A stretch of DNA of 64,000 nt from Lachnospiraceae bacterium NK4A144. GTDB lineage: Bacteria; Bacillota; Clostridia; Lachnospirales; Lachnospiraceae. Position numbers and translations under genes: made by a program. Positions 16,276-44,688 of the stretch are shown one piece after another; the first letter of the stretch is position 1; each line of letters opens with the position of its first letter. The stretch spans positions 1 to 64,000 of the forward strand of contig AUJT01000007.1 in NCBI GenBank assembly GCA_000424365.1, in the 5' to 3' direction. Under the pieces are notes generated by a model. That model was not told where the DNA came from and searched no databases. It worked only from the letters and a program-made list of their open reading frames with translations.

Positions 16276-16341
16276 TGCTATTTAAAATAGCAAAAAGTGA
16301 TGTGAAGTGCTATTATAGTCGTTGTACGGTTATGTAAACAA
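16276..16341 (+). promoter_or_regulatory. Polysaccharide promoter module, copy 1
   Basis: A 17-bp palindrome TGCTATTTAAAATAGCA (16276-16292), then TGCTATTATA (16308-16317) as an extended -10, then the leader GTTGTACGGTTATGTAAACAA. The same layout with identical spacing occurs at 22925 and 25090. The -10 repeats the half-site TGCTATT of the palindrome. No good -35 hexamer is visible, which suggests activator dependence. It stands 55 bases upstream of the fusion glycosyltransferase start. The rest of the gap 16163-16275 shows no gene. Confidence 0.75.
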
Positions 16342-16395
16342 TAAGGGTTTGTTTGCGACCGGCAAAAAGTGAACACCAGGGGGGAATAAGGTACC

Positions 16396-18135
16396 ATGCG
16401 TAAGAAGTATTGCGAGAATGCAGTGATCCTCACGGATCTCGCGGTCTTTGCGATTGCATTTATATGCAGTCTCCTTATCAGGTATGGAGGGGAAGCAAGG
16501 CATGTGCTTTTTGATTATAACTACAGTCAGAATATAGGCATGCTTTTTCTATATCTAATCCTTTATCTGCTGATCATATTTGCGGTCAGAGGAACGGGCG
16601 GGTATAAACTCGGACGAAATATCCCGGAGCAGATAATCTACGTGGTGAGAAATCAGGGGACACTTCTCATGATCATTATCCTCTTTGCATTCTTCACACA
16701 ACGAGGAATGAGTTTTTCCAGAAAGTTTGTAGCATATACTTTTACGATAAGCGTTGTACTGGATCTGATAGCGAGGTCGATGCTGAGACACAGATGCGAA
16801 AATGCATCACGGCAGGATATAAGCCGCAGGAAATCCGGCAGAGATTCTGTCCATTCGGTGTTTACCATTGATGAGCATGTGGTCCGGGAACTGTATGGAG
16901 ATGAGCTGCCGGAGCCCGGAGAGATGGGCACGGGGGAAGAGAATGTATCAGGCAGAGACGGCTTTGAAAAATACCGTCATGTATTTGCTATAGGATGTAA
17001 GGGAATACCTGCGACCTACGGTGGATTTGAGAGTTTCATGGATAATCTCACTCGAAATAAGAAAGATCCGAAACTCATGTATCATGTAGCGAGGATAAGT
17101 CGTGACACTCTTAGATTTGAGTACAACGATTCGGTCTGTTTTGACATACCGGTACCTGATATAGGCGCAGCAAAAGCTATCATATATGACTGTTCTGCTA
17201 TTGAGCATAGCATCCGCTATTGCAAGAGACATCCGGAGATAAAAAATCCTGTGTTTTTTATAATGGCTTGCAGGATCGGACCGGTCATTTCTATTTACAA
17301 AAACAGGATTCATAAACTCGGAGGAAAGCTGTATGTGAATCCTGATGGACATGAGTGGAAGAGAGCAAAGTGGAACCGCTTCATAAAAAAGTATTGGAAA
17401 ATCTCGGAACGGCTCATGGTAAAACACGCGGATCTGCTTATATGTGACAGCAGAAACATAGAGAAGTATATGCATGAGATGTATGCGGAATATGAACCGA
17501 AAACCACCTTTATCCCGTACGGAAGTGACATAAAGGCATCGGTACTGAAAGATGATGATAATGATTTCCAAAGGTGGCTCAGATTTAATAGATTGAAGCC
17601 CGGTGAGTACTATCTGGTCGTTGGACGGTTTGTACCGGAGAACAATTTTGAAACAGTGATCAGAGAATTTATGAAGAGCGATACGGAAAGAAAGCTCGCG
17701 ATCATCACGACAGAAAACAGCAGATTTCTTGAAGAACTACAGAATAAACTCGATTTTGAGAGCGATAAGAGGATACGTTTTACAGGAACGGTATATAACG
17801 ATGAACTTCTGAAAAAGATCAGAGAGAATGCGTTTGCATATATACACGGTCATGAGGTCGGTGGTACAAATCCGAGTCTTCTCGAGGCACTCAGCAGTAC
17901 GAATCTCAATCTTTTAAATGAAGTCAGATTTAATACAGAGGTTGGAGCAGACGCTGCGCTTTACTGGAATAAAAAGGACAAGAGCCTGCAGGATCTCATC
18001 GAGTATGTGGAGAAACTCGATGAAGCCGAGATCGAGGACTACGGAAATAGAGCAAAACGCAGGATAGAGAAGGAGTATCTCTGGAAAGAAACCTGCGAAA
18101 ACTATGAAAGGGTGTTTAGAGAGGAGAGTAATTAA
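16396..18135 (+). CDS. Membrane-anchored rhamnosyltransferase-type glycosyltransferase (fusion)
   Basis: 579 residues. Residues 1-130 hold four membrane segments (about 9-28, 45-65, 85-103 and 108-128), arranged as in the N-terminal part of polyprenyl-phosphate sugar transferases (WbaP/WcaJ), but the catalytic C-terminal part of those enzymes is absent. Residues about 193-575 are a DUF1972-type rhamnosyltransferase (FAIGCKGIPATYGGFESFMDNL, NPDGHEWKRAKW, IPYGSDIKASV, VVGRFVPENNFETVI, GGTNPSLLEALSS). This would tether a cytoplasmic glycosyltransferase to the membrane where the lipid-linked glycan is built. It starts the first polysaccharide transcription unit and precedes the ligase by 7 bases. 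Confidence 0.8.
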   Translation: MRKKYCENAVILTDLAVFAIAFICSLLIRYGGEARHVLFDYNYSQNIGMLFLYLILYLLIIFAVRGTGGYKLGRNIPEQIIYVVRNQGTLLMIIILFAFFTQRGMSFSRKFVAYTFTISVVLDLIARSMLRHRCENASRQDISRRKSGRDSVHSVFTIDEHVVRELYGDELPEPGEMGTGEENVSGRDGFEKYRHVFAIGCKGIPATYGGFESFMDNLTRNKKDPKLMYHVARISRDTLRFEYNDSVCFDIPVPDIGAAKAIIYDCSAIEHSIRYCKRHPEIKNPVFFIMACRIGPVISIYKNRIHKLGGKLYVNPDGHEWKRAKWNRFIKKYWKISERLMVKHADLLICDSRNIEKYMHEMYAEYEPKTTFIPYGSDIKASVLKDDDNDFQRWLRFNRLKPGEYYLVVGRFVPENNFETVIREFMKSDTERKLAIITTENSRFLEELQNKLDFESDKRIRFTGTVYNDELLKKIRENAFAYIHGHEVGGTNPSLLEALSSTNLNLLNEVRFNTEVGADAALYWNKKDKSLQDLIEYVEKLDEAEIEDYGNRAKRRIEKEYLWKETCENYERVFREESN

Positions 18136-18142
18136 ATAAGCG

Positions 18143-19780
18143 ATGTTAAAGAAAAAGACTGAAGTAAAAGAACTGTTTTCATTTAAGTTTCTGAAGGAAT
18201 TTATAGGAGTTTATCTGGCATTTTTCTTCCTGCTTTTTCCACTATATTACGAGCGTAATTACGCACATATCGGTGAAGTGAAATGGAAGATCTACAGGAA
18301 TTTCACGTTGTACATAAAGATGTTTGGATTGACGGTTCCGACAGCATTGGGTGTGATGGTGGTTGTTTTTCTCCTGCATATGAGAGCTCTCGGAAAGACA
18401 GGAGAGAGGGAACAGTTTTGGAAATCGGTTTCTAAAACTGATATATGTGCGTTGGCATATATTATAATCTGTTTTGTATCGACGATAATCACACCTTATA
18501 AAGAATATGTAGTCATGGGCTCCGGTGGATGGTACTGCGGATTGATCTTTCAGCTGTCGGTAGTTCTATTGTACTTCTTTATGTCACGGTACTGGAGATG
18601 GGATGATATCATGTTTATGGCGTACCTCGGTGCGTCGGCAGTGGTGTATCTCCTGGCAGTAATGCATCGTTTTAGTATCGATCCTTTTAATTTTTACGCT
18701 GGACTTTCAGATGATCGAAAAAGAACATTTCTGACAACGATGGGTCAGAATACCTGGTATTCAAGTTATCTCGTTATAATCTTTCCAATCGGACTTTTCG
18801 CATACTGGTATGTGAAGAAAAAGTCCTACAGGATCGCGACTTTTCTGTATCTGGTTCTGGCATCCATGACTATCGTAACACAGGATTCGGACAGCGCATT
18901 TATGGCACTCTTTGCGATAAATCTGGTGCTTTTTGCAGTATCATTTAGGTCAAATGAGTATATGATAAGGTATTTTGAAAGTCTGGTGGTGATGTTAACC
19001 ACTTGGCGTATCGTGGGCTTTATGCAGATGATATTTGCAGATAGCGTACTCACAACCGGAAAGATCATGCTCTTTTGCAGTCAGAGTAATCTTATGTGGA
19101 TACCGTGGGCTGCATCCGTCGCAATTTACGTGCTTTTAAGAAAACTGGATAAAGAGCATAAACTGGATGTAACGAAGTACAAGTGGATCTATAAGGTGCT
19201 GATAGCTGCGGTTCTGCTTGGTATAGCGGCACTTGTAATCTACATCGTGCTGAATACGACAGGTGCTTTGCCGGAGAACCTGAGGAGCACAAGTAATTAT
19301 TTGTACTTCGATGACGGCTGGGGAAATCACCGAGGTATTAACTGGAAGATGGCGGTAAATACCTATATCGCTACATCAAAAGATCATCCGTGGATGGCAG
19401 TTATTGGTGGTGGTCCAGACTCATATGTCGAATCAATTAAGATCTACTTTGGAGAACTGGTCAATGATTACTTTGGTTCAAGAGGGTATGGAACAGTACA
19501 GTCTGCGCATAACGAGTTCCTTACAGAACTGGTATGGGGCGGAGCGCTGGGATTAATAGCATATGTCGGTATCTTTGTGACAGCGATCATCAGAAATCTG
19601 AAAGCCTCAAAGAAAACACCGGAGAGCCTGGCAATAGTACTGGCGATAGTTGGATATATGGCACATAACTTTTTCTGCTACCAGCAGGTAATCTGCACAC
19701 CAACGATCTTCATAATTATCGGAATGGGAGAATGTATCGCCAGAATGGGTGAACTGAGACTCATATCAGATGGGGGCTGA
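18143..19780 (+). CDS. O-antigen ligase/polymerase family membrane protein
   Basis: 545 residues with about 11-12 membrane segments. The region near residues 395-475 holds the large extracytoplasmic loop and the conserved HNEFLTELVWGGALGLIAYVGI, typical of the Wzy_C/O-antigen ligase superfamily, where an arginine and a histidine in this loop are functional. In a Gram-positive organism it would polymerise a surface polysaccharide or attach it to a carrier. It is co-transcribed with the preceding glycosyltransferase and followed by a terminator. Confidence 0.82.
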   Translation: MLKKKTEVKELFSFKFLKEFIGVYLAFFFLLFPLYYERNYAHIGEVKWKIYRNFTLYIKMFGLTVPTALGVMVVVFLLHMRALGKTGEREQFWKSVSKTDICALAYIIICFVSTIITPYKEYVVMGSGGWYCGLIFQLSVVLLYFFMSRYWRWDDIMFMAYLGASAVVYLLAVMHRFSIDPFNFYAGLSDDRKRTFLTTMGQNTWYSSYLVIIFPIGLFAYWYVKKKSYRIATFLYLVLASMTIVTQDSDSAFMALFAINLVLFAVSFRSNEYMIRYFESLVVMLTTWRIVGFMQMIFADSVLTTGKIMLFCSQSNLMWIPWAASVAIYVLLRKLDKEHKLDVTKYKWIYKVLIAAVLLGIAALVIYIVLNTTGALPENLRSTSNYLYFDDGWGNHRGINWKMAVNTYIATSKDHPWMAVIGGGPDSYVESIKIYFGELVNDYFGSRGYGTVQSAHNEFLTELVWGGALGLIAYVGIFVTAIIRNLKASKKTPESLAIVLAIVGYMAHNFFCYQQVICTPTIFIIIGMGECIARMGELRLISDGG

Positions 19781-19825
19781 AAAGAGATACGGGATAGGAG
19801 TTAAATTAAGAGAAATATAGATCAT

Positions 19826-19869
19826 AAACAAACACCTGACAGGTAATCTTCCTGATCAGGTGTTTGTTT
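19826..19869. terminator. Terminator after the ligase gene
   Basis: Inverted repeat AAACAAACACCTGA / TCAGGTGTTTGTTT, 46 bases after the stop codon. Confidence 0.8.
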
Positions 19870-19878
19870 AATTTATAG

Positions 19879-19897
19879 GAAATTCCATTGGAATTTC
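19879..19897. promoter_or_regulatory. Perfect 19-base palindrome upstream of the zinc-ribbon gene
   Basis: GAAATTCCA-T-TGGAATTTC is symmetric over 9-bp arms. It lies 29 bases upstream of the -35 of the next promoter and may be an operator. It has no T tract, so it is not a terminator. Confidence 0.45.
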
Positions 19898-19925
19898 GAT
19901 AAAATAAATCCTGAGGCCGTATCCA

Positions 19926-19954
19926 TTGAAAAAAGGATTATCAAATGGGATAAT
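19926..19954 (+). promoter_or_regulatory. Promoter of the zinc-ribbon/YARHG gene
   Basis: TTGAAA (19926-19931), a 17-base spacer and GATAAT (19949-19954). Confidence 0.65.
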
Positions 19955-20002
19955 TTAATAATGACAGGGTCAAAAGTAAAAAATGATAAACAGGAGAGAC
20001 AT

Positions 20003-21538
20003 ATGTTTTGTTCTAAGTGCGGAAATAATCTGAGTGAGAATGCAAAATTTTGTCCGAAGTGCGGAGCTAAGGTCCCGAATAGGAGCGAAGCAGAAAGTCG
20101 TGAAGGAAAAAATGTAATTAATCCTGCCGCGGAGCAGCGAAAGGTGCTGGCGAAGGATATTAAAAGCGCAGAAGTAAAGAAGGGAAGCATGGTTCCGATC
20201 ATAGCGATCATTGCAATGATCGTTGTGGTGGCATTTGTCTTTGTCGGATTTTTCGTGGTGAAAAATGTAATAGGCAGCATGGTAGGTGAAACTGCAGATA
20301 GAATAGCTATGGAATCGGATGAGGAAGATGATAAGAAAGCCTCAAGTGACAAGGTTGAAACGGAAACCTCAAAAGAGGATGGATCAGAAGCTTACCCGGA
20401 TGAAAAAACAAATCTTGAAAAGCTGGAAGACTATGCAGAGGATCTGATCAGTATCGCAGGAAACAAGGGAACGGTATATCTGACGAGCAATAGTAGTGGT
20501 GTACAAAAAATTAAAACTGACGTAGGTTCCGGAAATATAGGGTATTATCTGGATAGTTATGCAGAAATGCTCGTTACTGCTGATTATGAAGACGAAGAAA
20601 AAAACAGAATCCGTCTAAAGACTTATGGTGTAGACAGTAATGGAACAGTAAAAGAACTCGATAATTACACCTATGATGAATTGCCCGAAGTAATAAAAGG
20701 TGATACCGGTAAGGTTTCTATTTACAAGTGGGACATAGATCCTGCCGGTGACAGCAATAGCAATTCTGTGATGCACTTTGGAATAGAGGAACGTTCACTT
20801 TATTGTACAGGTGCTGATGGAGTTTATTATCTCCTGGATATCTTTTCAGTAGGCGAAGATGGAGAAATCACCCTGGAATTTGAAAAGAGCATGGCGGGAT
20901 CAGATGTCTCGCTCGAAGACTTTGGGGATGATCTCCGTAACTACATGGGTAACAGCAGATATGATAACAGAATGTACTACAATTCGTTTTGCAGTAATGA
21001 GCTTATGGATGAGTCCGGTGATGACACTGAGACACTCGGAGTGATCGAAAATGTTTCAGAAGCATATAAGATACAGAACGCAGGCAGATACGAGGAAGCC
21101 GGAGATATTTCCATGAAAGCTTCCGGACAGGTGGGCAGCGGAGTAGAGGATTATCCATGGTCAAGACTTCGGATAAAAGGAACAAACGATGTGACCGGAG
21201 GCGGTTACGATGATTATTTCGACAATACTGTATCCTACGACACAGAAGAAACCGATCTGTATGACAGTGAATATATCATCCCGGATAGCGGAATACGGAT
21301 GCTGTCACTCAGTGATCTCGAACCGTTGTCTGCTGAAGAACTGAGACTTGCGAGAAATGAGATCTATGCAAGACACGGAAGAAAATTTAAAGACAAAGCA
21401 CTGCAGGATTATTTTGATGGAAAGTCCTGGTATGTGGGGCAGATCGAACCGGATGATTTCACTGACGATATGCTGAGCGATATTGAACGTGAGAACAAAA
21501 ATCTGATCGCAGATTACGAGAAGAGCCTGAGTAAATAA
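20003..21538 (+). CDS. Zinc-ribbon membrane protein with C-terminal YARHG domain
   Basis: 511 residues from ATG 20003, chosen for the AGGAGAG site just before it; an in-frame ATG at 19961 has none. Residues 1-26 are a zinc ribbon with two CxxC pairs (MFCSKCGNN, FCPKCGAK). One membrane helix lies near 68-92 (MVPIIAIIAMIVVVAFVFVG). A long acidic, probably extracytoplasmic region follows, and residues about 425-511 are a YARHG domain (LSAEELRLARNEIYARHGRKF). YARHG is an extracellular domain of unknown function, found on such zinc-ribbon anchors in Clostridia. It looks like a single-gene unit. Confidence 0.82.
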   Translation: MFCSKCGNNLSENAKFCPKCGAKVPNRSEAESREGKNVINPAAEQRKVLAKDIKSAEVKKGSMVPIIAIIAMIVVVAFVFVGFFVVKNVIGSMVGETADRIAMESDEEDDKKASSDKVETETSKEDGSEAYPDEKTNLEKLEDYAEDLISIAGNKGTVYLTSNSSGVQKIKTDVGSGNIGYYLDSYAEMLVTADYEDEEKNRIRLKTYGVDSNGTVKELDNYTYDELPEVIKGDTGKVSIYKWDIDPAGDSNSNSVMHFGIEERSLYCTGADGVYYLLDIFSVGEDGEITLEFEKSMAGSDVSLEDFGDDLRNYMGNSRYDNRMYYNSFCSNELMDESGDDTETLGVIENVSEAYKIQNAGRYEEAGDISMKASGQVGSGVEDYPWSRLRIKGTNDVTGGGYDDYFDNTVSYDTEETDLYDSEYIIPDSGIRMLSLSDLEPLSAEELRLARNEIYARHGRKFKDKALQDYFDGKSWYVGQIEPDDFTDDMLSDIERENKNLIADYEKSLSK

Positions 21539-21582
21539 GGACGTGCGATAATGATAGATAGAGGATACGATTGCAATGAAGA

Positions 21583-21665
21583 TATTTCATTTTCAATAAG
21601 AAAAAGTACCAGGTATAAAGAGGGTTGAGATCAGAGATAAGGTATTTTTTGAAGTGACTGTGTGA
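21583..21665 (+). pseudogene. Remnant of the 3' end of an AAA-ATPase/nuclease gene
   Basis: These bases match the last 80 or so bases of the intact gene at 47794-49395 (its ending FNKKKVTGMKRVEIRDKVLFEVTV plus stop, quoted in part: MKRVEIRDKVLFEVTV). One base is missing after the AATAAGAAAAA stretch, so the frame shifts, but the ending EIRDKVFFEVTV and the stop are preserved. Nothing of the rest of the gene is seen upstream. It sits tail-to-tail with the Rpn gene that follows. Confidence 0.75.
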
Positions 21666-21678
21666 GGAAACTTAAATA

Positions 21679-21711
21679 TTGCCGCACCATTTATTTTAAG
21701 TCGTGCGGCAA
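21679..21711 (-). terminator. Terminator of the first type-2 Rpn gene
   Basis: Inverted repeat TTGCCGCAC / GTGCGGCAA with an AT-rich loop, 23 bases past the stop codon of the minus-strand gene. Confidence 0.7.
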
Positions 21712-21733
21712 TTAGATTATCAGATTTTGAGTA

Positions 21734-22648
21734 TTAATTTATTGCTTTTCTACATTCTTCGATGTGAGACTTAGACTGAGATTCGGTCAAACCGTATTTT
21801 GCTTTGAGTTTTTCGATTATTTTGTCATCGGGGATATTGTCTTCGAGCTTGTCCTCGATGAAAATTCGGATTCCCTCAGCCTTACCTTCGGCTTTGCCCC
21901 TAGCTTCGCCACGGGCCTCGATTATATCTAACGCTTCACACATGGTTGCATTCTCCTTTCCTGCTGTAGATAATTTACGGCTGGTTTCTTCAAATCTGCT
22001 GTCACCGGTTAATACTGCCATGAGTTTCAGGACAGCATCCTGATGATCCATTGGCCTGTTATCCGGTATATACTCCAACCCACGGTTGATTTTGTAGAAA
22101 TAGTCTGCGATTATATGGAAGTCACTCTTAAATTCATCAATCTGCTCACGTGACAGATCATTGATGTTTACGACATTGATTTTATAATCACTTACGTACT
22201 TTTTCAGACAATACGGGATAGATATGCAGTCGTACAACGAATGATTTTTCCAACTATTTTTTCCAAAATTGATGACAAGCGTAACAACCGGAACCAAAGG
22301 TGGAATAGCCTTCTTTTTCTTTTTGCAGCTGTCAATTTCGACAAGCTGTTCCTTGTAAGATGAACCATCATAGCTCAATACTCTCGCTGGTTCATATTTA
22401 TCCACGCTGGACTGATTTTCGATGCCAATTATTGAAATCCGGATACGGTTATGCTGCCAGATTTTTACATTGTCTCGTTCCTGCTCATGGATGGAGCCAT
22501 CGATTTTTAGCTGCGACTTTGTCCGGGTATTGGTAAGATCATCTTCTTTAACTAGCGGTTTGCCGTCAAAAAGAAGCGTGTTTACAATGTCGGCAAATAC
22601 ATCATTGTAATCTTCGAGAGTTTTCTCAGTAATGTCTTTTTCACCCAT
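21734..22648 (-). CDS. Rpn family PD-(D/E)XK nuclease-like protein, type 2, copy 1
   Basis: 304 residues. The N-terminal part has the PD-(D/E)XK pattern of Rpn/YhgA-like 'putative transposase' proteins: ERDNVKIW, then IGIENQSSVDKYEPARVLSYDGSSY, where E-x-Q replaces E-x-K. The region near residue 245-265 contains EARG and KAEG repeats, and the C-terminus ends in a helical tail. The family promotes recombination, cuts DNA in E. coli (RpnA) and has been linked to phage defence. The copy at 46577-47533 is closely similar. The promoter carries a LexA-type box (22710-22723). Confidence 0.82.
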   Translation of the reverse strand: MGEKDITEKTLEDYNDVFADIVNTLLFDGKPLVKEDDLTNTRTKSQLKIDGSIHEQERDNVKIWQHNRIRISIIGIENQSSVDKYEPARVLSYDGSSYKEQLVEIDSCKKKKKAIPPLVPVVTLVINFGKNSWKNHSLYDCISIPYCLKKYVSDYKINVVNINDLSREQIDEFKSDFHIIADYFYKINRGLEYIPDNRPMDHQDAVLKLMAVLTGDSRFEETSRKLSTAGKENATMCEALDIIEARGEARGKAEGKAEGIRIFIEDKLEDNIPDDKIIEKLKAKYGLTESQSKSHIEECRKAIN

Positions 22649-22709
22649 TGATTACGATATTTCTCCTTTATCCTAACATAATAAAAAGTAGAACAAAAGT
22701 CCCTTTTTA

Positions 22710-22723
22710 AGAACTGCCGTTCT
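22710..22723. promoter_or_regulatory. LexA/SOS-type box of the first type-2 Rpn gene
   Basis: AGAAC-TGCC-GTTCT, a perfect palindrome with the Gram-positive LexA core GAAC-N4-GTTC, placed 5 bases downstream of the -10 so that it covers the transcription start. The equivalent palindrome, with other central bases, precedes the second Rpn copy. Confidence 0.7.
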
Positions 22724-22728
22724 ATATC

Positions 22729-22757
22729 AATATAGCATACATTTGTTCTACAAACAA
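22729..22757 (-). promoter_or_regulatory. Promoter of the first type-2 Rpn gene
   Basis: On the minus strand TTGTTT (22757-22752), a 17-base spacer and TATATT (22734-22729) with an upstream TGC (extended -10). Confidence 0.6.
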
Positions 22758-22859
22758 GTGTTTTGCAAAAATAAATGTATGGTGTAGTTACGAGAATAAC
22801 AAAAAAGAAGCTTTGGTAAAATAGCATTAAGGATAGCATGAAAAAGAATAGAAGATGAT

Positions 22860-22902
22860 AAATCCCGACATGGAGAATTAAGAATTCTATGTCGGGATTT
22901 TT
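22860..22902 (+). terminator. Terminator hairpin, shared type, copy 1
   Basis: AAATCCCGACATGGAGAATT and its near-complement are followed by TTTTT. Closely related hairpins stand at 25025 and 49421. Here no plus-strand gene ends directly upstream. The gap 22649-23052 otherwise holds the Rpn promoter region and the polysaccharide promoter module. Confidence 0.75.
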
Positions 22903-22924
22903 GCTGTTAGTTTTTAAGATTAAA

Positions 22925-22990
22925 TGCTATCCCAAATAGCATATAATAGAATGAAGTGCTACAATAGCGATTGTACGATTTCGCAAACAG
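22925..22990 (+). promoter_or_regulatory. Polysaccharide promoter module, copy 2
   Basis: Palindrome TGCTATCCCAAATAGCA (22925-22941), extended -10 TGCTACAATA (22957-22966) and leader ATTGTACGATTTCGCAAACAG, all at the same spacing as in copies 1 and 3. Confidence 0.72.
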
Positions 22991-23052
22991 ATTGAAGGTA
23001 TGCACTTAATTGAAAAGTGAGCATAAAAGAAGAGAAGGGAACTGTAAGTGGC

Positions 23053-24183
23053 ATGAGAATCGGAATAGATGCTCACATGATCGGTGATCACTCGGGTGGA
23101 AACGAAAGTTTTTATTCAGGAGTTTTTGGAGAATTTCAGCCGGATAAAGGTGATGATTATTTCTTATTTCTGAAAGAAGGAGTCGATGATACGGCTTATT
23201 GTGACAGGTTTAATATAGTGAGGTTTAAGAGCCATAACGCATTTATCAGAAATTTCGTCGAACTTTCTATTCTGGCGAAAAAGTTGAAACTTGATCTCCT
23301 GCACACGCAGTATTACATCCCATTTATACGACCGTGTCCAGTGATCTGCACGATCCATGATATATGCTTTGAGCACTATAAGGATATCTTTACCAAGGGA
23401 GAGTATTTTAGAAATAAATTATTGATCCCGTATGCAGCAAAGCACTCTGCAGGAATCGTTACGGTATCAGAATTTTCTAAGAAAGACATCGCAGAACGTT
23501 ATCACATATCGCCAAAGAAAATTCATGTGGTGTATAACGCTGTTGATCCGGTGTTCAGAAAAATGACATTGGATGAACTGGCAGCGGTCGGCGTCCGTGA
23601 AAAATATGCGATAGGAAATGATCCATATATAATTTCGGTAGGGAATCTGCAGCCGAGGAAAAACATACCGAGACTCATACAAGCATACAGTATGTACAAA
23701 AAAAGACATCCGGAAAAACAGTTGAAACTTGTTATCGTTGGTAAAAAGGCATGGATGTATGATGAGATACTGAAACATGCACAGACAGATCCATCAAACA
23801 TAGTCCTGACAGGGTATGTAGAGAGAGAAGATCTCGTGGCTTTAATTAATGAAGCAAGAGGTTTTGTATATCCGTCAATATTTGAGGGGTTTGGGATACC
23901 ACCATTAGAAGCACTGGCTTGCGGTACACAGGCAGCGGTATCCGATATCCCGGTTATGCGAGAAGTGCTGGGAGAGAGCACTGAAACAGAATTTTTTGAT
24001 CCGTTAAGTGTGGAGAGTATCTGCGAGGCGATCGAGAGGCTGGTGAATAAGAGTGTGATAGAAGGAGCGGATGTTCTGCGGAGGTATTCTTGGAAGAAAA
24101 GTGCGGAAGTGATGAGAGAAATATATATGGCGTTGTGTTATAGGACCACAGGACAGAGGGAAAAACGTCTTGACGAATACTAA
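23053..24183 (+). CDS. GT4 family glycosyltransferase
   Basis: 376 residues from ATG 23053 (MRIGIDAHMIG, the usual GT4 start); an upstream GTG at 23017 adds 12 residues without a ribosome binding site, and the purine-rich stretch before 23040 is at an unusually long distance, so the start is uncertain. Family features: TIHDICFEHYKDIF, VTVSEFSKKDIAERY, YIISVGNLQPRKNIPRLIQAY and YPSIFEGFGIPPLEALACG with the E-x7-E type nucleotide-sugar motif. It is like mannosyl- or rhamnosyltransferases of polysaccharide loci. The acceptor is unknown. It is the only gene behind promoter copy 2. Confidence 0.87.
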   Translation: MRIGIDAHMIGDHSGGNESFYSGVFGEFQPDKGDDYFLFLKEGVDDTAYCDRFNIVRFKSHNAFIRNFVELSILAKKLKLDLLHTQYYIPFIRPCPVICTIHDICFEHYKDIFTKGEYFRNKLLIPYAAKHSAGIVTVSEFSKKDIAERYHISPKKIHVVYNAVDPVFRKMTLDELAAVGVREKYAIGNDPYIISVGNLQPRKNIPRLIQAYSMYKKRHPEKQLKLVIVGKKAWMYDEILKHAQTDPSNIVLTGYVEREDLVALINEARGFVYPSIFEGFGIPPLEALACGTQAAVSDIPVMREVLGESTETEFFDPLSVESICEAIERLVNKSVIEGADVLRRYSWKKSAEVMREIYMALCYRTTGQREKRLDEY

Positions 24184-24198
24184 AAGAAAATGTATACT
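24170..24198 (+). promoter_or_regulatory. Consensus promoter of the small RNA/DUF3800 unit
   Basis: TTGACG (24170-24175), exactly 17 bases, TATACT (24193-24198). It overlaps the last codons of the upstream glycosyltransferase gene. Confidence 0.8.
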
Positions 24199-24204
24199 TA
24201 CCTT

Positions 24205-24280
24205 AATATCAAAGATTGATAGGGGCTGACCGAAAGGTCCGGGTCCACCAAAGGCGCTGGGAACCGGCGCCATTTTTTTT
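24205..24280 (+). ncRNA. Short structured RNA upstream of the DUF3800 gene (DUF3800-motif candidate)
   Basis: The predicted transcript starts about 7 bases after the -10 and is about 75 bases long. It contains a hairpin GACC-GAAA-GGTC (24228-24239, GNRA tetraloop), a single-stranded GC-rich stretch, and a terminator hairpin GGCGCTGG-GAA-CCGGCGCC (24253-24271) followed by eight T. The DUF3800 start lies 35 bases downstream of the T run. From memory, several conserved RNA motifs named DUF3800-I and so on were reported upstream of genes of this family; this could be one, either an attenuating leader or a free small RNA. I cannot check which motif it fits. Confidence 0.65.
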
Positions 24281-24314
24281 GCTAAAAATTATTAATATAA
24301 GGATTAATTTACAG

Positions 24315-25004
24315 ATGTCAATGAGAGAGGCAAAGATACTAAGTTGCTTTGTGGATGAGTCGGGAGATTTTGGAAAATATGATTCAAATTGTCCATATTA
24401 TATGGTATCTGTTGTTTTGCATGATCAAAGTGATTCTATAAAGAAACAATTGGATGGACTAGAAGCGTATTTGTCCAATATGGGCTTTTCACATCATGCG
24501 TTACATGCAGGTCCGCTTGTAAGACGTGAATCAGATTATGAGCAAATGGATATGGAAGATAGGAAAAAGCTTTTTAACCTATTGTTTAATTTTATGCGTA
24601 AGCTGCCTATTAAATATTTCTGTGTTAAGGTAAAAAAATCGGAATGTAAAGATGCAGATGAACTTGATGCGAAGTTAACCAAGGTTATAAAGAATGAGGT
24701 TCTTAAAGAGGAAAGATATTGGGAATCATTTGATAAAATTATCATATATTATGATAACGGTCAGAAAGCATTAAAGCGAGTATTAAATATTACCTTTAAC
24801 AGTTTGTTTTCTGAGGTTGAGGTCAGAAAAGTACAACCTACAGATTATAGATTGTTTCAAGTTGCTGATTTGTTGTGTACATTAGAATTAACAAACGCAA
24901 AAATAAAGAATGGACATTTTTCAAATACAGAGAAAATGTTTTTTCACAGTCCGCGTGATTTTCGTAAAGAATATTGGAGAAAAGTCGAAAGAATCCATAT
25001 TTGA
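24315..25004 (+). CDS. DUF3800 domain protein
   Basis: 229 residues from ATG 24315 (ATG 24321 is also possible). The domain signature is the acidic start CFVDESGDFGKY, with YYDNGQ in the middle and DYRLFQVADLLCTLEL near the end. The family has an RNase H-like predicted fold and is often found in mobile or defence-rich regions. Its function is unknown. Codon use is AT-rich like the polysaccharide genes to its right. It is wedged between two polysaccharide units with its own promoter, RNA and terminator, so it looks like an inserted cassette. Confidence 0.82.
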   Translation: MSMREAKILSCFVDESGDFGKYDSNCPYYMVSVVLHDQSDSIKKQLDGLEAYLSNMGFSHHALHAGPLVRRESDYEQMDMEDRKKLFNLLFNFMRKLPIKYFCVKVKKSECKDADELDAKLTKVIKNEVLKEERYWESFDKIIIYYDNGQKALKRVLNITFNSLFSEVEVRKVQPTDYRLFQVADLLCTLELTNAKIKNGHFSNTEKMFFHSPRDFRKEYWRKVERIHI

Positions 25005-25024
25005 TATAAAAGAATAAATTGGGT

Positions 25025-25066
25025 AAATCCCGACGTAGAGTAGAATAACTCTATGCCGGGATTTTT
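25025..25066 (+). terminator. Terminator hairpin, shared type, copy 2 (after DUF3800)
   Basis: AAATCCCGACGTAGAGT pairs with ACTCTATGCCGGGATTT, followed by TTTT, 21 bases past the DUF3800 stop. Confidence 0.85.
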
Positions 25067-25089
25067 GAATGAAAGAATTTAAATATGAT

Positions 25090-25155
25090 TGCTATTTATA
25101 ATAGCATTTAAAGAGACAAAGTGCTATTATATCTATTGTACGGTTATGTAAACAA
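25090..25155 (+). promoter_or_regulatory. Polysaccharide promoter module, copy 3
   Basis: Palindrome TGCTATTTATAATAGCA (25090-25106), extended -10 TGCTATTATA (25122-25131) and leader ATTGTACGGTTATGTAAACAA. A leader of about 220 bases follows up to the first gene, with a hairpin ATAGGC/GCCTAT at 25236-25256. The leader (25156-25361) has no convincing ORF. Confidence 0.75.
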
Positions 25156-25361
25156 CGTTAAGCGTTTCTGCCGTATTGATTAGAGGGACAGCAAGGGGAG
25201 AAAAAGCAGGGGCTCTTTATTCATTACAGTCATTCATAGGCCTATTTTGCGCCTATTCTATTATCCTCTTTATATTTCTCGCGTGGGGATGAGTTTCTCC
25301 ATGTTATTTTGAATAAGTTTCCAAAAAACATTTATTGAAAAGACAGGTATATCGTTAGTTA

Positions 25362-26261
25362 ATGCGAAATGTTGTCATAATTCTTAATTTCAATGATTTG
25401 GAGCAGACCATAAAAACGGTTTGCGATATTTCGGGTTATCAAAATATTGAAAGAGTTATCGTCGTTGATAATAACTCGACGGATGACTCTGCGACTAGAT
25501 TGTATGAATATCAAGGATACAAAGAAAAAGTTGATGTCATAAGTACAGATAGAAACGGCGGTTATGCATATGGCAATAACGTTGGATGCAGATATGCAAT
25601 TGAGAAATATGATCCGGAAATATTAACCATTGCCAATCCTGATGTTTCGTTTTCTGAGAACACTTTAGAAGAGATGTTGGAAACTGCAAGAAATAAAGAA
25701 AAATGCGGAGTGGTGGGATGTATGATGAACTGCCATTCTTTGATAAAGCTTCCATCAGCATGGAGGCTTCTAACATACGTGGATTGTATGTTGGAAAATC
25801 TGATCCTGCTAAAAAGGCTTATCGGAGATAAAAAATTGTATGAAGAATCGGAGCTTGCAAAAGATGCTATAGAAGTAGATGCGATTGCTGGTTCGTTTTT
25901 TTGTATATGTTGCGAAGCCTATAAAAAATGCAGGGGATTCGATGAAAACACATTTCTATATTACGAAGAAACAATACTCGCAAAGAGGTTAAAGGATAGA
26001 GGGTATAAAAACTATCTCCTTACAAAGGTTAACTATGAGCACTATCACTCGGTGAGTATTGATAAAGAGTTTAACAGTAAAATGAAACGACTGGATCTCG
26101 CATATAAAAGCAGAAGATATTACATGGAGAAATATTTAAGGACAGGAAAAATTGGATTGCTAATTTCGGATATTACATATTCGATAGGACGGTTTGATTA
26201 TATGGCAGCTGATTGGATAAGGATGAGAATTAATGAAATGGGACATAAAAAGAATGCATGA
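25362..26261 (+). CDS. GT2 family glycosyltransferase
   Basis: 299 residues. The GT-A fold start VVIILNFNDLEQTIKTV, VIVVDNNSTDDS (the nucleotide-binding DNxS), RNGGYAYGNNVG and the DxD-like NPDV are those of the rhamnosyltransferase-like GT2 proteins. YYEETILAKRLKDRGY is the C-terminal family segment. It is the first gene of the long unit behind promoter copy 3. The next gene starts 29 bases inside its 3' end. Confidence 0.88.
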   Translation: MRNVVIILNFNDLEQTIKTVCDISGYQNIERVIVVDNNSTDDSATRLYEYQGYKEKVDVISTDRNGGYAYGNNVGCRYAIEKYDPEILTIANPDVSFSENTLEEMLETARNKEKCGVVGCMMNCHSLIKLPSAWRLLTYVDCMLENLILLKRLIGDKKLYEESELAKDAIEVDAIAGSFFCICCEAYKKCRGFDENTFLYYEETILAKRLKDRGYKNYLLTKVNYEHYHSVSIDKEFNSKMKRLDLAYKSRRYYMEKYLRTGKIGLLISDITYSIGRFDYMAADWIRMRINEMGHKKNA

Positions 26262-27345
26262 AGTTATTGATCTACAAAAAATAAAAAAGAAAAAAATGCT
26301 TTATCTATGTGCTATAGAGTGGGAGTGGATAGCTCAGAGACCTCATTTTTTAGCGTTAGAACTTCAGAAATACTATGACATCAAGGTGGCTAGTCCTATA
26401 CATCTTTTTAAAAAGATAGATATACAGAGAAATAATAAAAAAGCAGATCAGCACAGTACGTTTTTTTTATTACCGTTGCAAGAGAAATACAAGGCTATAG
26501 GCATGCTTTCAGAGCTGTTTTTTAGGTTAAAAATTGGGTCATTAAGCAAGTATGACATGATTTGGCTTGGATCTCCTATTTTCATAAGGTACATACCAAA
26601 ATCGTATAAAGGTCAGGTTATTTACGATTACATGGATGACTGCGTATCAATGCAGATGTCTGAAAGAATGAGAGATATATTTAGAAAAGCACATGATCAC
26701 TTAAGCAAAAGGGCGAATGTGATTTTTGCAAGCAGTAATTATTTGCTTAAGTTATTGCCGGAAGATATCAGAAAAAAGGCATTTATTGTCAGTAATGCTT
26801 TTAAGGGAAAAAGTCTTTATTCACCTCAAATAAAATCGGTAGATGATGTATTGAAGCTTGGATATGTCGGTACGATTTCTAGCTGGATGGATTGGAATCT
26901 ATTGGAAAAAAGCATTGAATTGGATAGTGGTATTGAATATCACTTTTGGGGACCAAAGGACGTAGATATACCGCAAAATGAGCATTTTTTATACCATGGA
27001 ATAGTTGAGCATGATGATATTGCAAAAGCGGTTGAAAATGTTGATGCACTAGTCATGCCTTTTATTATAAATGACGTTGTTAAGGCAGTAGATCCAGTAA
27101 AACTCTATGAATATATAAGTTTTGGGAAAAATGTTATCTGTTGTTCATATGATGAAGTTCAAAAATATAGCGATTATGTGTGGCTATACGATGACGAAAA
27201 TTCATATTGTCGGATCACAAAGCAGCTAAAGGCCAATGATTTGCCTGTTAAATATAATGTCGAATCTCAGAGGAGATTTTTGGAAAAGAATACTTGGGCA
27301 TGCAGGGCAGAGCAAATATATCAAATATTGGAGAGGAAACAATAA
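26233..27345 (+). CDS. Glycosyltransferase, GT1/GT4-like
   Basis: 370 residues. MLYLCAIEWEWIAQRPHFLALEL is a start seen in GT-B proteins of polysaccharide loci. The second half has LKLGYVGTISSWMDWNLL, HFWGP, YHGIVEHDDIAKAVENVDALVMPF and VDPVKLYEYISFGKNVI, the usual donor-domain segments. The donor and acceptor are unknown. It overlaps the upstream GT2 by 29 bases; a start at 26254 is a weaker alternative. Confidence 0.82.
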   Translation: MKWDIKRMHEVIDLQKIKKKKMLYLCAIEWEWIAQRPHFLALELQKYYDIKVASPIHLFKKIDIQRNNKKADQHSTFFLLPLQEKYKAIGMLSELFFRLKIGSLSKYDMIWLGSPIFIRYIPKSYKGQVIYDYMDDCVSMQMSERMRDIFRKAHDHLSKRANVIFASSNYLLKLLPEDIRKKAFIVSNAFKGKSLYSPQIKSVDDVLKLGYVGTISSWMDWNLLEKSIELDSGIEYHFWGPKDVDIPQNEHFLYHGIVEHDDIAKAVENVDALVMPFIINDVVKAVDPVKLYEYISFGKNVICCSYDEVQKYSDYVWLYDDENSYCRITKQLKANDLPVKYNVESQRRFLEKNTWACRAEQIYQILERKQ

Positions 27346-33908: not shown

Positions 33909-35426
33909 ATGCAAACGTATAATTATGAGCTTGATTTAAACACAAAAAATAGCAATTCGATGATTATAAACATGATAAAACCCGGTAGTTTGGTTTTAGA
34001 GTTTGGTCCTGCTTTTGGACGTCTGACTAAATATATTTCTGAGTCGTTATCATGTACCGTCGATATAGTTGAAATGGATAGTGAATCAGGGGAAAATGCT
34101 TCTAAATATGCAAGAACTGCCTGTATTGGAAAGATAAATGGAAATATTGAGACGTTAGCTTGGACGAAGAAATTAGCAGGGAATAAGTATGATTATATAA
34201 TATTTGCTGATGTACTAGAACACTTACATAATCCTGGAGATGTTTTAAGAGTATGTTGTGCTTTTTTAAAAAAGGATGGAGAGATACTTTGTTCTGTGCC
34301 TAATATAGCACATTCTTCAATCATCATTTCTCTGTGGAATAATGATTTTACATATCAAAATGTTGGATTGCTTGACCAAACACATGTGCATTTTTTTACG
34401 AGAAAAACATTTGAGTTATTGGCACGAGAAAATGGGTTGGAGCCAATTTCTATCGAGAGTATTAGTGTGGGTGTAGGGGGGAATGAAATTAGATGGATAT
34501 ATGATAGTCTCCCCGAGGTCGTCAATGAAGAATTAAGGTTAAGAGACGAGGGTGATGCATATCAATATATTTTTAGATTAAAGAGGCAAATAGATATAAA
34601 TAATGAGGCTGGACAGGTATTGAATGTATCAAGTGTTGCAGGATATGTCTGTGAATGCTTTTTTAAGAAGGATTCTGATACGGAGTTTACTTCTTTACAG
34701 AGAATTCAAAAAAAGTACAATTCTCGAAGTGCTAAAATCTATTTTGATTTGAATAATATTCAACGGTTAAATGGCTTATGTGTAAAGCTGCTGCCATGTA
34801 GTGCCTTGATTAGGATCATTAATATTAGCTGGGATAGCTGTGATATACCATATACAACTAATGGAAACATAATAAGTGAAAATATATATGCTTTTCTTGG
34901 GAGTGCAGAAGTTTTCATTACTGTACCAGAAGTAAATCATCAGATTCTGTACGTGGAATTTGAAATAATTACAACATTCGAAAAATATATAAACATGTTT
35001 GGGCATGTAGTTAAGATGTTAAATCAAAAGGCTGAGGAAGAAAAAAATGAGATTAGACAGTTACAAGTTGTAGTTAATGACATTAAACAAAAAATGAACG
35101 ACCAGATTGCTGAAAGAGAGATAGAATCACAAAGATTTAATGATCAGATTAGCTTCTATCAAGAAGAAAATCAGAAACTGAATGATCAAATAGGCGTTTT
35201 TGAAGAGGAGAGGGCAAAGCTAAATGATCAGATTAGTTTCTATCAAGAAGAAAATCAGAAACTGAATGATCAAATAGGCGTTTTTGAAGAGGAGAGGGCA
35301 AAGCTAAATGATCAGATTAGTTTCTATCAAGAAGAAAATCAAAAACTTAATGATGTAGTTTTAGCTTATGAAGAAAAGAAAACAAAATCAATTTGGGATA
35401 TATTAAAAAAAACTTATAAAGAATGA
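33909..35426 (+). CDS. SAM-dependent methyltransferase with long repeated coiled coil
   Basis: 505 residues. Residues about 15-190 are a class I methyltransferase (SLVLEFGPAFGRLTKYI, YDYIIFADVLEHLHNPGDVL, DGEILCSVPNIAH). A middle region of unknown type follows. Residues about 375-490 are a coiled coil containing a 28-residue unit (LNDQISFYQEENQK / LNDQIGVFEEERAK) repeated two and a half times. The set methyltransferase plus coiled coil next to Wzm/Wzt recalls WbdD, which caps O-antigen chains and measures chain length with a coiled coil; that role here is inference. Confidence 0.82.
   Translation: MQTYNYELDLNTKNSNSMIINMIKPGSLVLEFGPAFGRLTKYISESLSCTVDIVEMDSESGENASKYARTACIGKINGNIETLAWTKKLAGNKYDYIIFADVLEHLHNPGDVLRVCCAFLKKDGEILCSVPNIAHSSIIISLWNNDFTYQNVGLLDQTHVHFFTRKTFELLARENGLEPISIESISVGVGGNEIRWIYDSLPEVVNEELRLRDEGDAYQYIFRLKRQIDINNEAGQVLNVSSVAGYVCECFFKKDSDTEFTSLQRIQKKYNSRSAKIYFDLNNIQRLNGLCVKLLPCSALIRIINISWDSCDIPYTTNGNIISENIYAFLGSAEVFITVPEVNHQILYVEFEIITTFEKYINMFGHVVKMLNQKAEEEKNEIRQLQVVVNDIKQKMNDQIAEREIESQRFNDQISFYQEENQKLNDQIGVFEEERAKLNDQISFYQEENQKLNDQIGVFEEERAKLNDQISFYQEENQKLNDVVLAYEEKKTKSIWDILKKTYKE
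35139..35354 (+). repeat. 84-bp in-frame tandem repeat in the methyltransferase gene
   Basis: The unit beginning AATGATCAGATTAG recurs at 35139, 35223 and 35307 with a period of exactly 84 bases. The second and third copies are nearly identical to the first, and the last is partial. Near identity at the DNA level indicates recent copying. Confidence 0.9.
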
Positions 35427-38460: not shown

Positions 38461-39375
38461 TTATTTTTCATTATCGTGCATTTCCTGAAGTAGCTGAGCC
38501 TGATACTGTGGATCTTGGGTTGAACGTGCAAGGTCATCCATGCGATTTGACTTAATTAAATATGCGTTTAATGCGTTGAGGTCGTTGAGAGTTTTTTTGC
38601 TACCCTGAGCAATGCCCTGCTCAAGAGCCTCTTCTCGGATGAGTTCAATATGTCCGGCTTGGTCGTATTCATATAGACTTACCATAGTGATCGCCTTCCT
38701 TTCCTTTTGGAAAAAATCACGAAGAATGTTGTGTTTTATGCAATAGTCAATTGCGTGAGAGACCGCTTCTGCAGTGGACATCGTTGCTGAGAATTCATGT
38801 ACCTTTGATACGTAGGTTGAGTATCCGAGGAGTTTTTCACAGCTTTCCATGAGATTTTTATTCTTGACAAGATTAATGTTTATGATATGAACAATAAGTT
38901 CCAGATCATGTTCCTTGGAATCGCTATCGTACATATCGGAAAGCCTGTAAATACTTGTTTTCGGAAGTTCATCCAGTCCATTATAGAATACTATAAAGTG
39001 TGGCTCCGGTATTTTTTGAATCTTGCTGCTGTAAAGCTTTTTCTCATCAACGATCTGCGCCAATAGTTTACTTGCGTAGAAGAGTGTCCTAAGCGGCATG
39101 TTAGGACATTTAGTTGATTGATGTACATAGATATTCAGTGAGGTATCGATGATGAAGGACAGATTATTTACCATACAAAGGAAGATTGCATTATCCAAAG
39201 TATTAATGATCAGATCATCGGGATCTTTGTAAGTAGTCTCATTGATGGCATTATAGAGATCCAAAAGTGCCTTTTTGTTATTGAAAAAGAGTTTAAAGGT
39301 GCTGTCTTTATATTCCCTATTGACCCAGGGCAGACGAATTTTTCTGAAAAAATAAGTGAGTGAATACTTGTTCAA
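38461..39375 (-). CDS. Rpn-like PD-(D/E)XK protein, type 1, copy A (active-site substitution)
   Basis: 304 residues, TTG start with AAAGG about 8 bases upstream. It belongs to a Lachnospiraceae group of Rpn/PD-(D/E)XK 'transposase-like' proteins: STFKLFFNNKKALLDLYNAIN, IIDTSLNIYVHQSTKCPNMPLRTLFY (shown in part), FIVFYNGLDELP, FFQKERKAITMVSLYEYDQ. It is closely similar over its whole length to the protein at 43774-44688. In copy A the residue that should be the catalytic glutamate of the E-x-Q motif is valine (NIYVHQS against NIYEHQS), so it may be inactive. Confidence 0.8.
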   Translation of the reverse strand: MNKYSLTYFFRKIRLPWVNREYKDSTFKLFFNNKKALLDLYNAINETTYKDPDDLIINTLDNAIFLCMVNNLSFIIDTSLNIYVHQSTKCPNMPLRTLFYASKLLAQIVDEKKLYSSKIQKIPEPHFIVFYNGLDELPKTSIYRLSDMYDSDSKEHDLELIVHIININLVKNKNLMESCEKLLGYSTYVSKVHEFSATMSTAEAVSHAIDYCIKHNILRDFFQKERKAITMVSLYEYDQAGHIELIREEALEQGIAQGSKKTLNDLNALNAYLIKSNRMDDLARSTQDPQYQAQLLQEMHDNEK

Positions 39376-39545
39376 TTTGAAAACCTTTCCGCATTAACGC
39401 AGAAAGAGACATAGAAGAACTTTATCTACGTTAATATTGACATATAAATAATAAAGTGGAAATTGTGAAAAAGACATTTTTCACAAAAGATGCGTAGCAG
39501 AATGTTAGCTTTATAAGAAAACACAATATAAATACAAAAAGCAAG
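39376..39545 (-). repeat. 5' flank shared by the type-1 Rpn copies (copy A)
   Basis: The bases upstream of this Rpn gene, up to ACAAAAAGCAAG at 39534-39545, match 44689-44854 with few changes. They include a hairpin-forming GCATTAACGCAGAAA next to the ribosome binding site. Beyond position 39545 the two loci diverge, which marks a boundary of the duplicated unit. Confidence 0.75.
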
Positions 39546-43773: not shown

Positions 43774-44688
43774 TTAGTGTCTTTTGTTCTTTAATTCCGA
43801 CAGTAATTTAGCCTGAAATTCAGAATCAGTGGTGGAGCGGCGAAGATCATCAATACGATTTTCGCGTATCAAATAGTCGTTTAATTCATTTATTGTGTTT
43901 ATACCCTGAATAATGCCTTGCTCGATACCCTGTTCCAAAGCTTCTTCACGAATGAGTTCCATGTGACCAGCCTGGTCGTATTCATATAAACTTACCATAG
44001 TGATTGCCTTCCTTTCCTTTTGGAAAAAATCATGAAGGATGTTATGTTTTATGCAGTAGTCGATAGCGTGAGCAACAGCTTCTGCATTATTCATTTTTGT
44101 TGAGAATTCACGTACTTTTGATACGTAGATCGAGTATCCGCGGAGCTTTTCACAGCTTTCCATGAGACTCAGGTTCATGCCGAGATTAATGTTTACGATA
44201 TGAACGATGAGTTCCAGATCGTGTTCTTCAGAAACATTATCGTACATGTCAGATAGCTTGTAGATACTGGTTTCAGGCAACTCTTCAAGTCCGTTGTAGA
44301 ATACTATAAAGTGTGGTTCTGGTATCTTCTTGATCTTGCTGCTGTAAAGCTTTTTCTCGTCAACGATCTGTGCCAGTAGCTTACTGGCATAGAATAGCGT
44401 CCGAAGCGGCATGTTCGGGCATTTCGTCGACTGGTGCTCATAAATATTAAGCGTCGTATCAATTATAAATGACAGATCATTGATCATACCAAGGAAGATT
44501 GCGTTGTCCAAGGTATTTATGATCAGGTCATCAGGATCTTTGTAAGCTGTCTTGTTAATGGCATTGTAGAGCTCCAAAAGAGCCTTCTTGTCATTAAAAA
44601 AGAGTTTGAAAGTGCTGTCCTTATAATTTCTGTTGATCCAAGGCAGACGTATTTTTCTGAAAAAGTAAGCAAGTTTAAGTTTGTTCAA
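43774..44688 (-). CDS. Rpn-like PD-(D/E)XK protein, type 1, copy B
   Basis: 304 residues, TTG start with AAAGGA 6 bases upstream. Same family and same domain plan as copy A at 38461-39375, but with the putative catalytic motif intact (NIYEHQSTKCPNMPLR). The C-terminal 40 residues (EQGIEQGIIQGINTINELNDYLIRE) differ most from copy A, consistent with the variable tails of Rpn proteins. A stem TTTCTGC/GCAGAAA (44698-44717) overlaps the ribosome binding site and may limit translation. Confidence 0.82.
   Translation of the reverse strand: MNKLKLAYFFRKIRLPWINRNYKDSTFKLFFNDKKALLELYNAINKTAYKDPDDLIINTLDNAIFLGMINDLSFIIDTTLNIYEHQSTKCPNMPLRTLFYASKLLAQIVDEKKLYSSKIKKIPEPHFIVFYNGLEELPETSIYKLSDMYDNVSEEHDLELIVHIVNINLGMNLSLMESCEKLRGYSIYVSKVREFSTKMNNAEAVAHAIDYCIKHNILHDFFQKERKAITMVSLYEYDQAGHMELIREEALEQGIEQGIIQGINTINELNDYLIRENRIDDLRRSTTDSEFQAKLLSELKNKRH

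What the first reader, a model, noticed from the sequence alone, without database searches (positions are those of the whole stretch)
16276..25155. Shared polysaccharide promoter module in three places with exact spacing
At 16276, 22925 and 25090 a 17-bp palindrome TGCTATT-N3-AATAGCA is followed, exactly 32 bases from palindrome start to element start, by TGCTATTATA or TGCTACAATA (an extended -10 that repeats the palindrome half-site), and then by a conserved transcribed stretch TTGTACGGTTATGTAAACAA. Each copy stands upstream of a glycosyltransferase gene. Three helical turns between similar half-sites and the lack of a -35 suggest one dedicated activator or alternative holoenzyme controlling the whole surface-glycan locus. 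I know of no described regulator for this site.
Basis: partly seen in the sequence, partly recalled or inferred. Interest (0 to 1): 0.8.

Follow-up and report, generated by a model that had tools for sequence, protein, structure and literature searches.

The report
Repeated operator-promoter in a glycan operon
A gut-type bacterium carries the same small on/off control sequence three times inside one gene cluster that builds a surface sugar coat, probably read by a small lambda-repressor-like protein, which is a new example of a familiar kind of gene switch.

Summary
A 7-3-7 palindrome stands exactly 32 bp upstream of an extended -10 element at 16276, 22925 (one half-site mismatch) and 25090. 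The copies are duplicates of one block, so they are not independent events.

Independent evidence is a congeneric genome, G066. Its related glycan operon has two modules with the same spacing and unrelated spacer DNA; one palindrome carries a compensatory T..A to C..G change. In G000, G066 and G009, every exact GCTATTNNNAATAGC is a glycan-locus module. A scan of 84,980 species' genomes gave 10 stretches: G066, G009 and 8 others, about the chance number.

Similar palindromes lie upstream of its gene in four genomes, weaker in G009, and in G066 it borders the glycan locus. Lambda-cI-like activation over the -35 region is my preferred mechanism; repression is not excluded.

An alternative sigma factor, LoaP and an RNA element are disfavoured. 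The transcribed 20-mer is lineage-specific. Copies 2 and 3 follow genes that interrupt an operon contiguous in G066.

The parts
16276..16292 (+). operator palindrome, copy 1 (TGCTATT TAA AATAGCA)
   Evidence: identical in G009
16308..16317 (+). extended -10 element, copy 1 (TGC TATTAT A), 32 bp from palindrome start
16322..16341 (+). conserved initial transcribed stretch, copy 1; lineage-specific, inferred +1 near 16323
   Evidence: transcription start inferred from the -10, not measured
16396..18135 (+). first gene behind copy 1: Cps2T-type rhamnosyltransferase (DUF1972 + GT group 1) with an N-terminus weakly like polyprenyl sugar transferases
   Evidence: Pfam; NCBIfam NF046071 565 bits vs cut-off 500; N-terminal matches below cut-off
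22860..22900 (+). terminator-like hairpin just upstream of copy 2
   Evidence: (z -6.2)
22925..22941 (+). operator palindrome, copy 2 (TGCTATC CCA AATAGCA; one half-site mismatch)
22957..22966 (+). extended -10 element, copy 2 (TGC TACAAT A)
22971..22990 (+). initial transcribed stretch, copy 2 (diverged, 15 of 20)
23017..24183 (+). GT4 glycosyltransferase behind copy 2 (start more likely at 23053, by comparison with G066)
25025..25064 (+). terminator-like hairpin upstream of copy 3, paralogous to that of copy 2
   Evidence: z -5.2
25090..25106 (+). operator palindrome, copy 3 (TGCTATT TAT AATAGCA)
25122..25131 (+). extended -10 element, copy 3 (TGC TATTAT A)
25136..25155 (+). initial transcribed stretch, copy 3 (exact)
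25362..26261 (+). GT2 glycosyltransferase behind copy 3
19961..22648 (.). segment absent from the G066 operon: zinc-ribbon/YARHG gene (+, 19961-21538) and a YhgA/Rpn-like gene (-, 21734-22648; PF04754 match below cut-off)
24216..25004 (+). segment absent from the G066 operon: DUF3800 gene with DUF3800-XI RNA (24222-24256)

Best explanation
Each copy is an operator-promoter. A sigma-A-type extended -10 promoter lacks a -35 hexamer, and a 17-bp palindromic operator is centred about 39 bp upstream of the inferred start, over the -35 region. A dimer binds there. The best candidate is a small XRE (HTH_3) regulator encoded outside the window (G000:C18:11651-12064, 138 aa), whose own upstream region carries the same kind of site. 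By analogy with lambda cI at PRM (recalled), I think the bound dimer most likely contacts RNA polymerase and activates the glycan operon, making one switch for the whole locus. The switch is present three times because the operon is split by other genes, and each re-entry point carries a copied terminator-operator-promoter-leader block. Shown: the anatomy, exact spacing, conservation with compensatory change, restriction to this locus, and operator-like sites upstream of the XRE gene. Inferred: binding by this XRE protein, activation rather than repression, and the start sites.
For: Module conserved across divergence: over the 15 pairs of six sequences, palindrome halves 11-14 of 14, spacer 2-7 of 12 (10 of 12 only for copy 1 against near-identical G009), -10 box 9-13 of 13. 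G066a has C..G in place of the outer T..A, so symmetry is kept. Spacing is 32 in all six. Exact GCTATTNNNAATAGC occurs 2, 2 and 1 times in G000, G066 and G009, always as a module. No -35 better than 3 of 6 in the five distinct modules. XRE lead: best site upstream of the gene 12 of 14 in G000, 13 in G030, 12 in G066, 11 in G009; shuffle P 0.008, 0 of 1000, 0.005, 0.07. A second palindrome, GCTATN5ATAGC, lies 31 bp further up in G000, G009 and G030, with AGCTAN7TAGCT in G066. Of 236 ORF upstream regions on five fetched stretches, 8 reached 12 of 14 or held GCTATN5ATAGC: 6 are modules (one counted from both sides) and 2 are XRE genes. Of the 11 sites with at most 1 mismatch outside the window in G000, 8 lie in ORFs and 1 of the other 3 is the XRE site, counting the XRE start at 12064. 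Synteny: in G066 the glycan locus lies between an export gene and XRE-HflX; in G000, G009 and G030 these genes are adjacent, flanks 80-97% identical on both sides. XRE relatives occur in 7 of 48 genus genomes, including all three in which the module is known.
Against: No binding, expression or start-site data. The XRE own-promoter sites are imperfect, and none was found at 4 other XRE relatives (G066_419, G009_C115, G061, G027; the G007 upstream was mis-framed and does not count). The G009 site is not better than shuffles at 5% and is not among that genome's sites with at most 1 mismatch. XRE sites lie further from the -10 (operator centre 51 bp from the hexamer against 27 in the modules). G030 has the XRE but no palindrome at its orphan copy of the first gene. 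The lead was found by noticing one site near the XRE in G066, so that site is not independent, and XRE orthologs share ancestry. XRE presence is confounded with kinship, and not every one of the 48 genomes was scanned with the spaced pattern. Extended -10 promoters can work without -35 or activator (recalled), so repression is possible.
Confidence: 0.45

Rival explanations
1. The same XRE protein binds the same site but represses: it blocks polymerase at the -35 region, as SinR does at eps genes in Bacillus (recalled). The extended -10 gives the basal promoter strength.
For: The operator overlaps the -35 region in all modules; the nearest NCBIfam models, all below cut-off, include phage repressors such as RstR and DicA.
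Against: No -35 consensus is kept inside the operator; XRE own-promoter sites in G000, G009 and G030 lie upstream of the core promoter rather than over the -10 or start, which fits activation better.
Confidence: 0.25
2. A different, unlinked transcription factor binds the palindrome, and the sites near the XRE gene are coincidental or belong to another protein.
For: No regulator domain was found in the genes from 16396 to 43445; XRE sites are imperfect and their spacing to the -10 differs.
Against: XRE upstream sites recur in four genomes (weakly in G009) and are the only ones outside modules among 236 upstream regions; XRE flanks the locus in G066.
Confidence: 0.22
3. An alternative sigma factor reads the 3' half-site AATAGCA as -35 and TGCTATTATA as -10.
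For: Fixed distance between the two elements.
Against: The 5' half-site is equally conserved, with compensatory change; the -10 is ordinary sigma-A type with 5 of 6 matches.
Confidence: 0.03
4. Duplicated ordinary promoters: the palindrome is a passenger of the copied block and has no function.
For: Copies 2 and 3 are paralogous over about 195 bp and copy 1 over module and leader.
Against: Spacers have diverged to 3-5 of 12 while palindrome halves stay at 13-14 of 14 in the duplicates, and likewise in G066.
Confidence: 0.05

Closest known systems
Lambda cI / P22 c2 type activation at PRM (recalled)
   Same: 17-bp palindromic operator over the -35 region of a promoter with a poor -35; HTH_3/XRE-type dimer; operator-like sites at its own gene
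   Different: Here the target is a chromosomal glycan operon, the -10 is extended, and activation is inferred only
SinR control of the eps operon in Bacillus subtilis (recalled)
   Same: XRE-family protein controlling a polysaccharide operon of a Gram-positive
   Different: Recalled operator differs; SinR represses; the two were not compared here
LoaP / RfaH antitermination of long polysaccharide operons (recalled; listing only)
   Same: Dedicated regulator of long glycan operons
   Different: Acts on elongation through a leader element; G066 has the modules but only one NusG-domain gene; window leaders show no significant fold

Membership tests
Sigma-A extended -10 promoter | TGN immediately before a -10 hexamer close to TATAAT | tested here: met
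   Hexamer 5 of 6 in all five distinct modules; TGC before it in four, TAC in G066b
Sigma-A extended -10 promoter | Transcription starts about 7 bp after the hexamer | not testable with these tools
   No 5'-end data
XRE/HTH_3 regulator with its own operator (candidate regulator) | HTH_3 domain over curated cut-off | tested here: met
   39.1, 49.2 and 48.5 bits vs cut-off 23 for the G000 and two G066 proteins
XRE/HTH_3 regulator with its own operator (candidate regulator) | Operator-like palindromes upstream of its own gene | tested here: inconclusive
   Present in G000, G030, G066 and weaker in G009; absent in 4 more distant relatives; a fifth (G007) not validly tested
XRE/HTH_3 regulator with its own operator (candidate regulator) | Protein binds the module | not testable with these tools
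   Needs EMSA or footprinting
LoaP/RfaH-controlled operon | Specialised NusG paralog in every genome with the module | tested here: not met
   G066 (99% complete) has one NusG-domain gene, a 179-aa frame taken as the housekeeping copy
Invertible (phase-variable) promoter | Inverted repeats flanking the promoter | tested here: not met
   Only about 600 nt around each copy searched, arms of 12 nt or more: none around copy 1; around copy 3 only the module itself; one 12-nt pair (92%, 468 nt apart) spans copy 2 and is taken as chance

The most novel reading that the evidence does not exclude
The glycan operon keeps one switch despite repeated gene insertions because a portable terminator-operator-promoter-leader block is copied behind each inserted cargo (YARHG and Rpn-like genes; DUF3800 gene with its RNA). 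One locus-linked XRE protein then drives every piece in step: an operon maintained as a multi-promoter regulon after fragmentation.
Probability: 0.25. Interest if true: 0.55.

Novelty: new member of a known kind. Interest (0 to 1): 0.42.

Why it matters
It would give a named, testable regulator and a defined operator for a surface-glycan locus in a Lachnospiraceae lineage; my searches for such a description (open-licence papers only, listings seen) found none. It would also show how an operon split by other genes can stay under one control by copying its own promoter block.

Tried and rejected
LoaP: NusG-domain genes are 3 in G000 but 1 in G066, which has the modules; rejected as a requirement.

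RNA element: leader folds have z 0.17, 0.75 and 0.28; Rfam finds nothing at the modules at gathering thresholds, nor at copy 1 up to E = 1 (L001).

Intragenic operator at 17196: lost in G030 and G066.

Wider regulon: the family scan of 397 genomes with up to 2 mismatches gave hits in 23; I judged only G000 and G066 real, from matched sequences alone, without reading the other 21 contexts. The scan of 84,980 species' genomes gave 10 stretches: G066, G009 and 8 others; 7.5 are expected by chance at even base composition. Of the 8, 4 lie inside ORFs (L112, L113, L115, L119) and 4 between genes or at a gene edge (L110, a Lachnospiraceae MAG; L111; L116; L118). Their neighbours were seen as ORF starts only, not annotated. 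Of 22 rows, only the three window copies and G009 have a symmetric palindrome. In loosened searches the reversed control was as frequent or more so.

The G066b gene's homolog in G000 has no module. Response-regulator and LacI genes further along C7 were set aside: the former is also in G030, and neither upstream region reached 12 of 14.

Literature: I saw search listings with the first lines of abstracts (one search found nothing) and read no paper. Statements on lambda cI, SinR, LoaP, extended -10 promoters and activator positions are recalled.

Full report
What is there. The three sites were read directly. Copies 1 and 3 have exact palindromes and copy 2 has one half-site mismatch; all three have an extended -10 exactly 32 bp from palindrome start. 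The 20-nt transcribed stretch is exact in copies 1 and 3 and 15 of 20 in copy 2. Simulated windows contain the architecture 0 or 1 times against 3 observed. In the whole genome, both strands, the spaced pattern occurs only here, plus one reverse-strand match overlapping copy 3.

The copies are related by descent. Copies 2 and 3 align over 22842-23036 and 25008-25202, including a terminator-like hairpin, the module and the leader. Copy 1 aligns with copy 2 from 16246 through the leader. In five genomes the block's other matches are G009's copy 1, the hairpin part alone at G066:C15:424724-424767 (84%, E 8e-6), and weak hits including a G066 module. Counting three copies as three independent events would overstate the case. 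What matters is what stayed the same: between window copies the 12-nt spacer agrees at 3-5 of 12 positions, the palindrome halves at 13-14 of 14 and the -10 box at 11-13 of 13.

Independent evidence comes from relatives. The first gene (16396-18135) was sought in 48 genus genomes. G009 (93%) has copy 1 nearly unchanged. G066 (76%) has CGCTATTTGCAATAGCG and, 32 bp from its start, TGCTATTATA upstream of the gene, so the outer pair changed on both sides. A second G066 module stands upstream of a 489-aa protein with a signal-like N-terminus, 1.8 kb away. G030 (86%) carries the gene as an orphan on another contig, keeps AAGTGTTATTATA and a leader resembling the 20-mer, but has no palindrome; its wzy relative sits in a different cluster. 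From contig lengths, G066:C15 is Lachnospiraceae bacterium KH1P17 FUZG01000001 and G009:C78 is the MAG contig CAMVTN010000078 (inference).

Specificity. Exact GCTATTNNNAATAGC sites: G000 2, G066 2, G009 1, all modules; G030 0; G065 2, of which one lies in a 704-aa ORF and the other showed no module and no ORF over 60 aa across it in the fetched piece. Of 397 family genomes searched with up to 2 mismatches, 23 had hits, and only those of G000 and G066 look like modules (judged from matched sequences). The scan of 84,980 species' genomes gave 10 stretches; apart from G066 and G009 there are 8, against 7.5 expected by chance, 4 in ORFs and 4 in or at the edge of intergenic DNA. Loosened palindromes are not enriched over the reversed control. 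This is a locus-specific element.

Operon context. In G066 the homologs of 16396, 18143, 23017, 25362, 26233, 27349, 28483, 31221, 32649 and 33909 follow one another directly, and the GT4 and GT2 genes overlap. In the window the same order is interrupted twice: by a YARHG gene with an opposed YhgA/Rpn-like gene, and by a DUF3800 gene with a DUF3800-XI RNA. After each interruption come a terminator-like hairpin and a module. Which arrangement is ancestral is not settled. G009 shares the YARHG gene at this place, but its contig ends there.

Promoter reading. The -10 hexamers score 5 of 6; no -35 hexamer at spacings 15-19 exceeds 3 of 6 in the five distinct modules; G030, without palindrome, has a 4 of 6 (chance of 4 or better is about 22%). 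The palindrome is centred 27 bp before the hexamer, about -39 from the inferred start. That is near where class II activators and lambda cI at PRM sit (recalled), and also where a repressor could block. The leaders do not fold better than shuffles.

The candidate regulator. Of 40 window proteins scanned with Pfam (not every ORF), including the large ORFs from 16396 to 43445, none shows a DNA-binding regulator domain. One of the sites with at most 1 mismatch in G066 (C15:417261) lies just upstream of an XRE gene. Its relatives are in G000 (C18:11651-12064), G009 (two), G030 and G066 (two), not G065, and in 7 of 48 genus genomes. Upstream of the gene, G000, G009 and G030 each carry GCTATN5ATAGC and, 31 bp on, a second site of 12, 11 and 13 of 14; G066 has AGCTAN7TAGCT and a 12 of 14 site. 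Shuffle P values are 0.008 (G000), 0.07 (G009), 0 of 1000 (G030) and 0.005 (G066). The four more distant relatives properly tested give 0.22 to 0.998, and a fifth (G007) was mis-framed by a truncated locus and does not count. The C18 and C9 sites were already in the genome-wide list before the gene was considered. The mechanical G000 ORF runs past its site to 12169; I place the start at 12064 because G009 and G030 have a stop codon just upstream of the same methionine. With 11 sites outside the window in 4.09 Mb, one falling within 150 bp upstream of a named gene has a chance of about 0.0004 (my arithmetic). Among 236 ORF upstream regions, only modules and the XRE genes of G000 and G030 stood out. 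In G000 it was the GCTATN5ATAGC site that counted; the G066 XRE site was missed there because the mechanical ORF starts before it.

Linkage. In G000 C18, G009 C1 and G030 C9 the order is: a ClpB-like gene, four transporter genes of the bmp type, a SecDF-type gene, a small export gene, XRE, HflX-type GTPase. Each matches its G066:C15 counterpart in the same order (export gene 80-82%, GTPase 85-86%, the rest of the flanks about 90-97%, XRE 53-55%; names from Pfam or by eye). In G066 the export gene is at 453450-454070 and XRE-GTPase at 417307-415659, so the glycan operon and about 19 kb of further genes fill the gap that is closed in the other three. The XRE gene is thus a boundary gene of the locus in G066, about 34 kb from the first module, and unlinked in G000.

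Conclusion and weight. Real cis-regulatory module: about 0.92. Dimeric protein site: about 0.88. This XRE protein: about 0.6. Activation rather than repression: about 0.6. The stated mechanism as a whole: 0.45. It is a new member of a known kind; the unusual part is the copied block at each operon break.

Noticed in passing
window 24222-24271: DUF3800-XI RNA (Rfam RF02975, 38.3 bits vs 37.8) directly before a DUF3800 gene that separates two glycosyltransferase genes overlapping in G066.
   Followed up: partly
window 27349 to about 35748: Proteins 93.7-99.8% identical to G066 (first 94 aa of 35467 identical), while those of 16396-27345 are only 60-75% identical; 41055, 46577 and 47764 are again 91-97%: looks like recent exchange between species.
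   Followed up: partly
window 38461-39545 and 43774-44854: Two copies of a 304-aa gene without Pfam match and its flanks, 83% identical over 300 nt, spaced 5.3 kb; a second, different pair of related genes at 21734 and 46577.
   Followed up: no
window 35139-35390: 42-nt tandem repeats in the 3' part of a methyltransferase-domain gene.
   Followed up: no
G066:C15 near 453090 (L095) and G000:C6 near 58289 (L127): Leaders of homologous proteins share CATGGGCACACATG; no Rfam family reached its gathering score.
   Followed up: partly
L005 (G000:C15:39480): One-mismatch palindrome in an intergenic region 44-60 bp before a gene with a sub-cut-off GDSL-lipase match; possible further site, but no -10 at +32.
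   Followed up: partly
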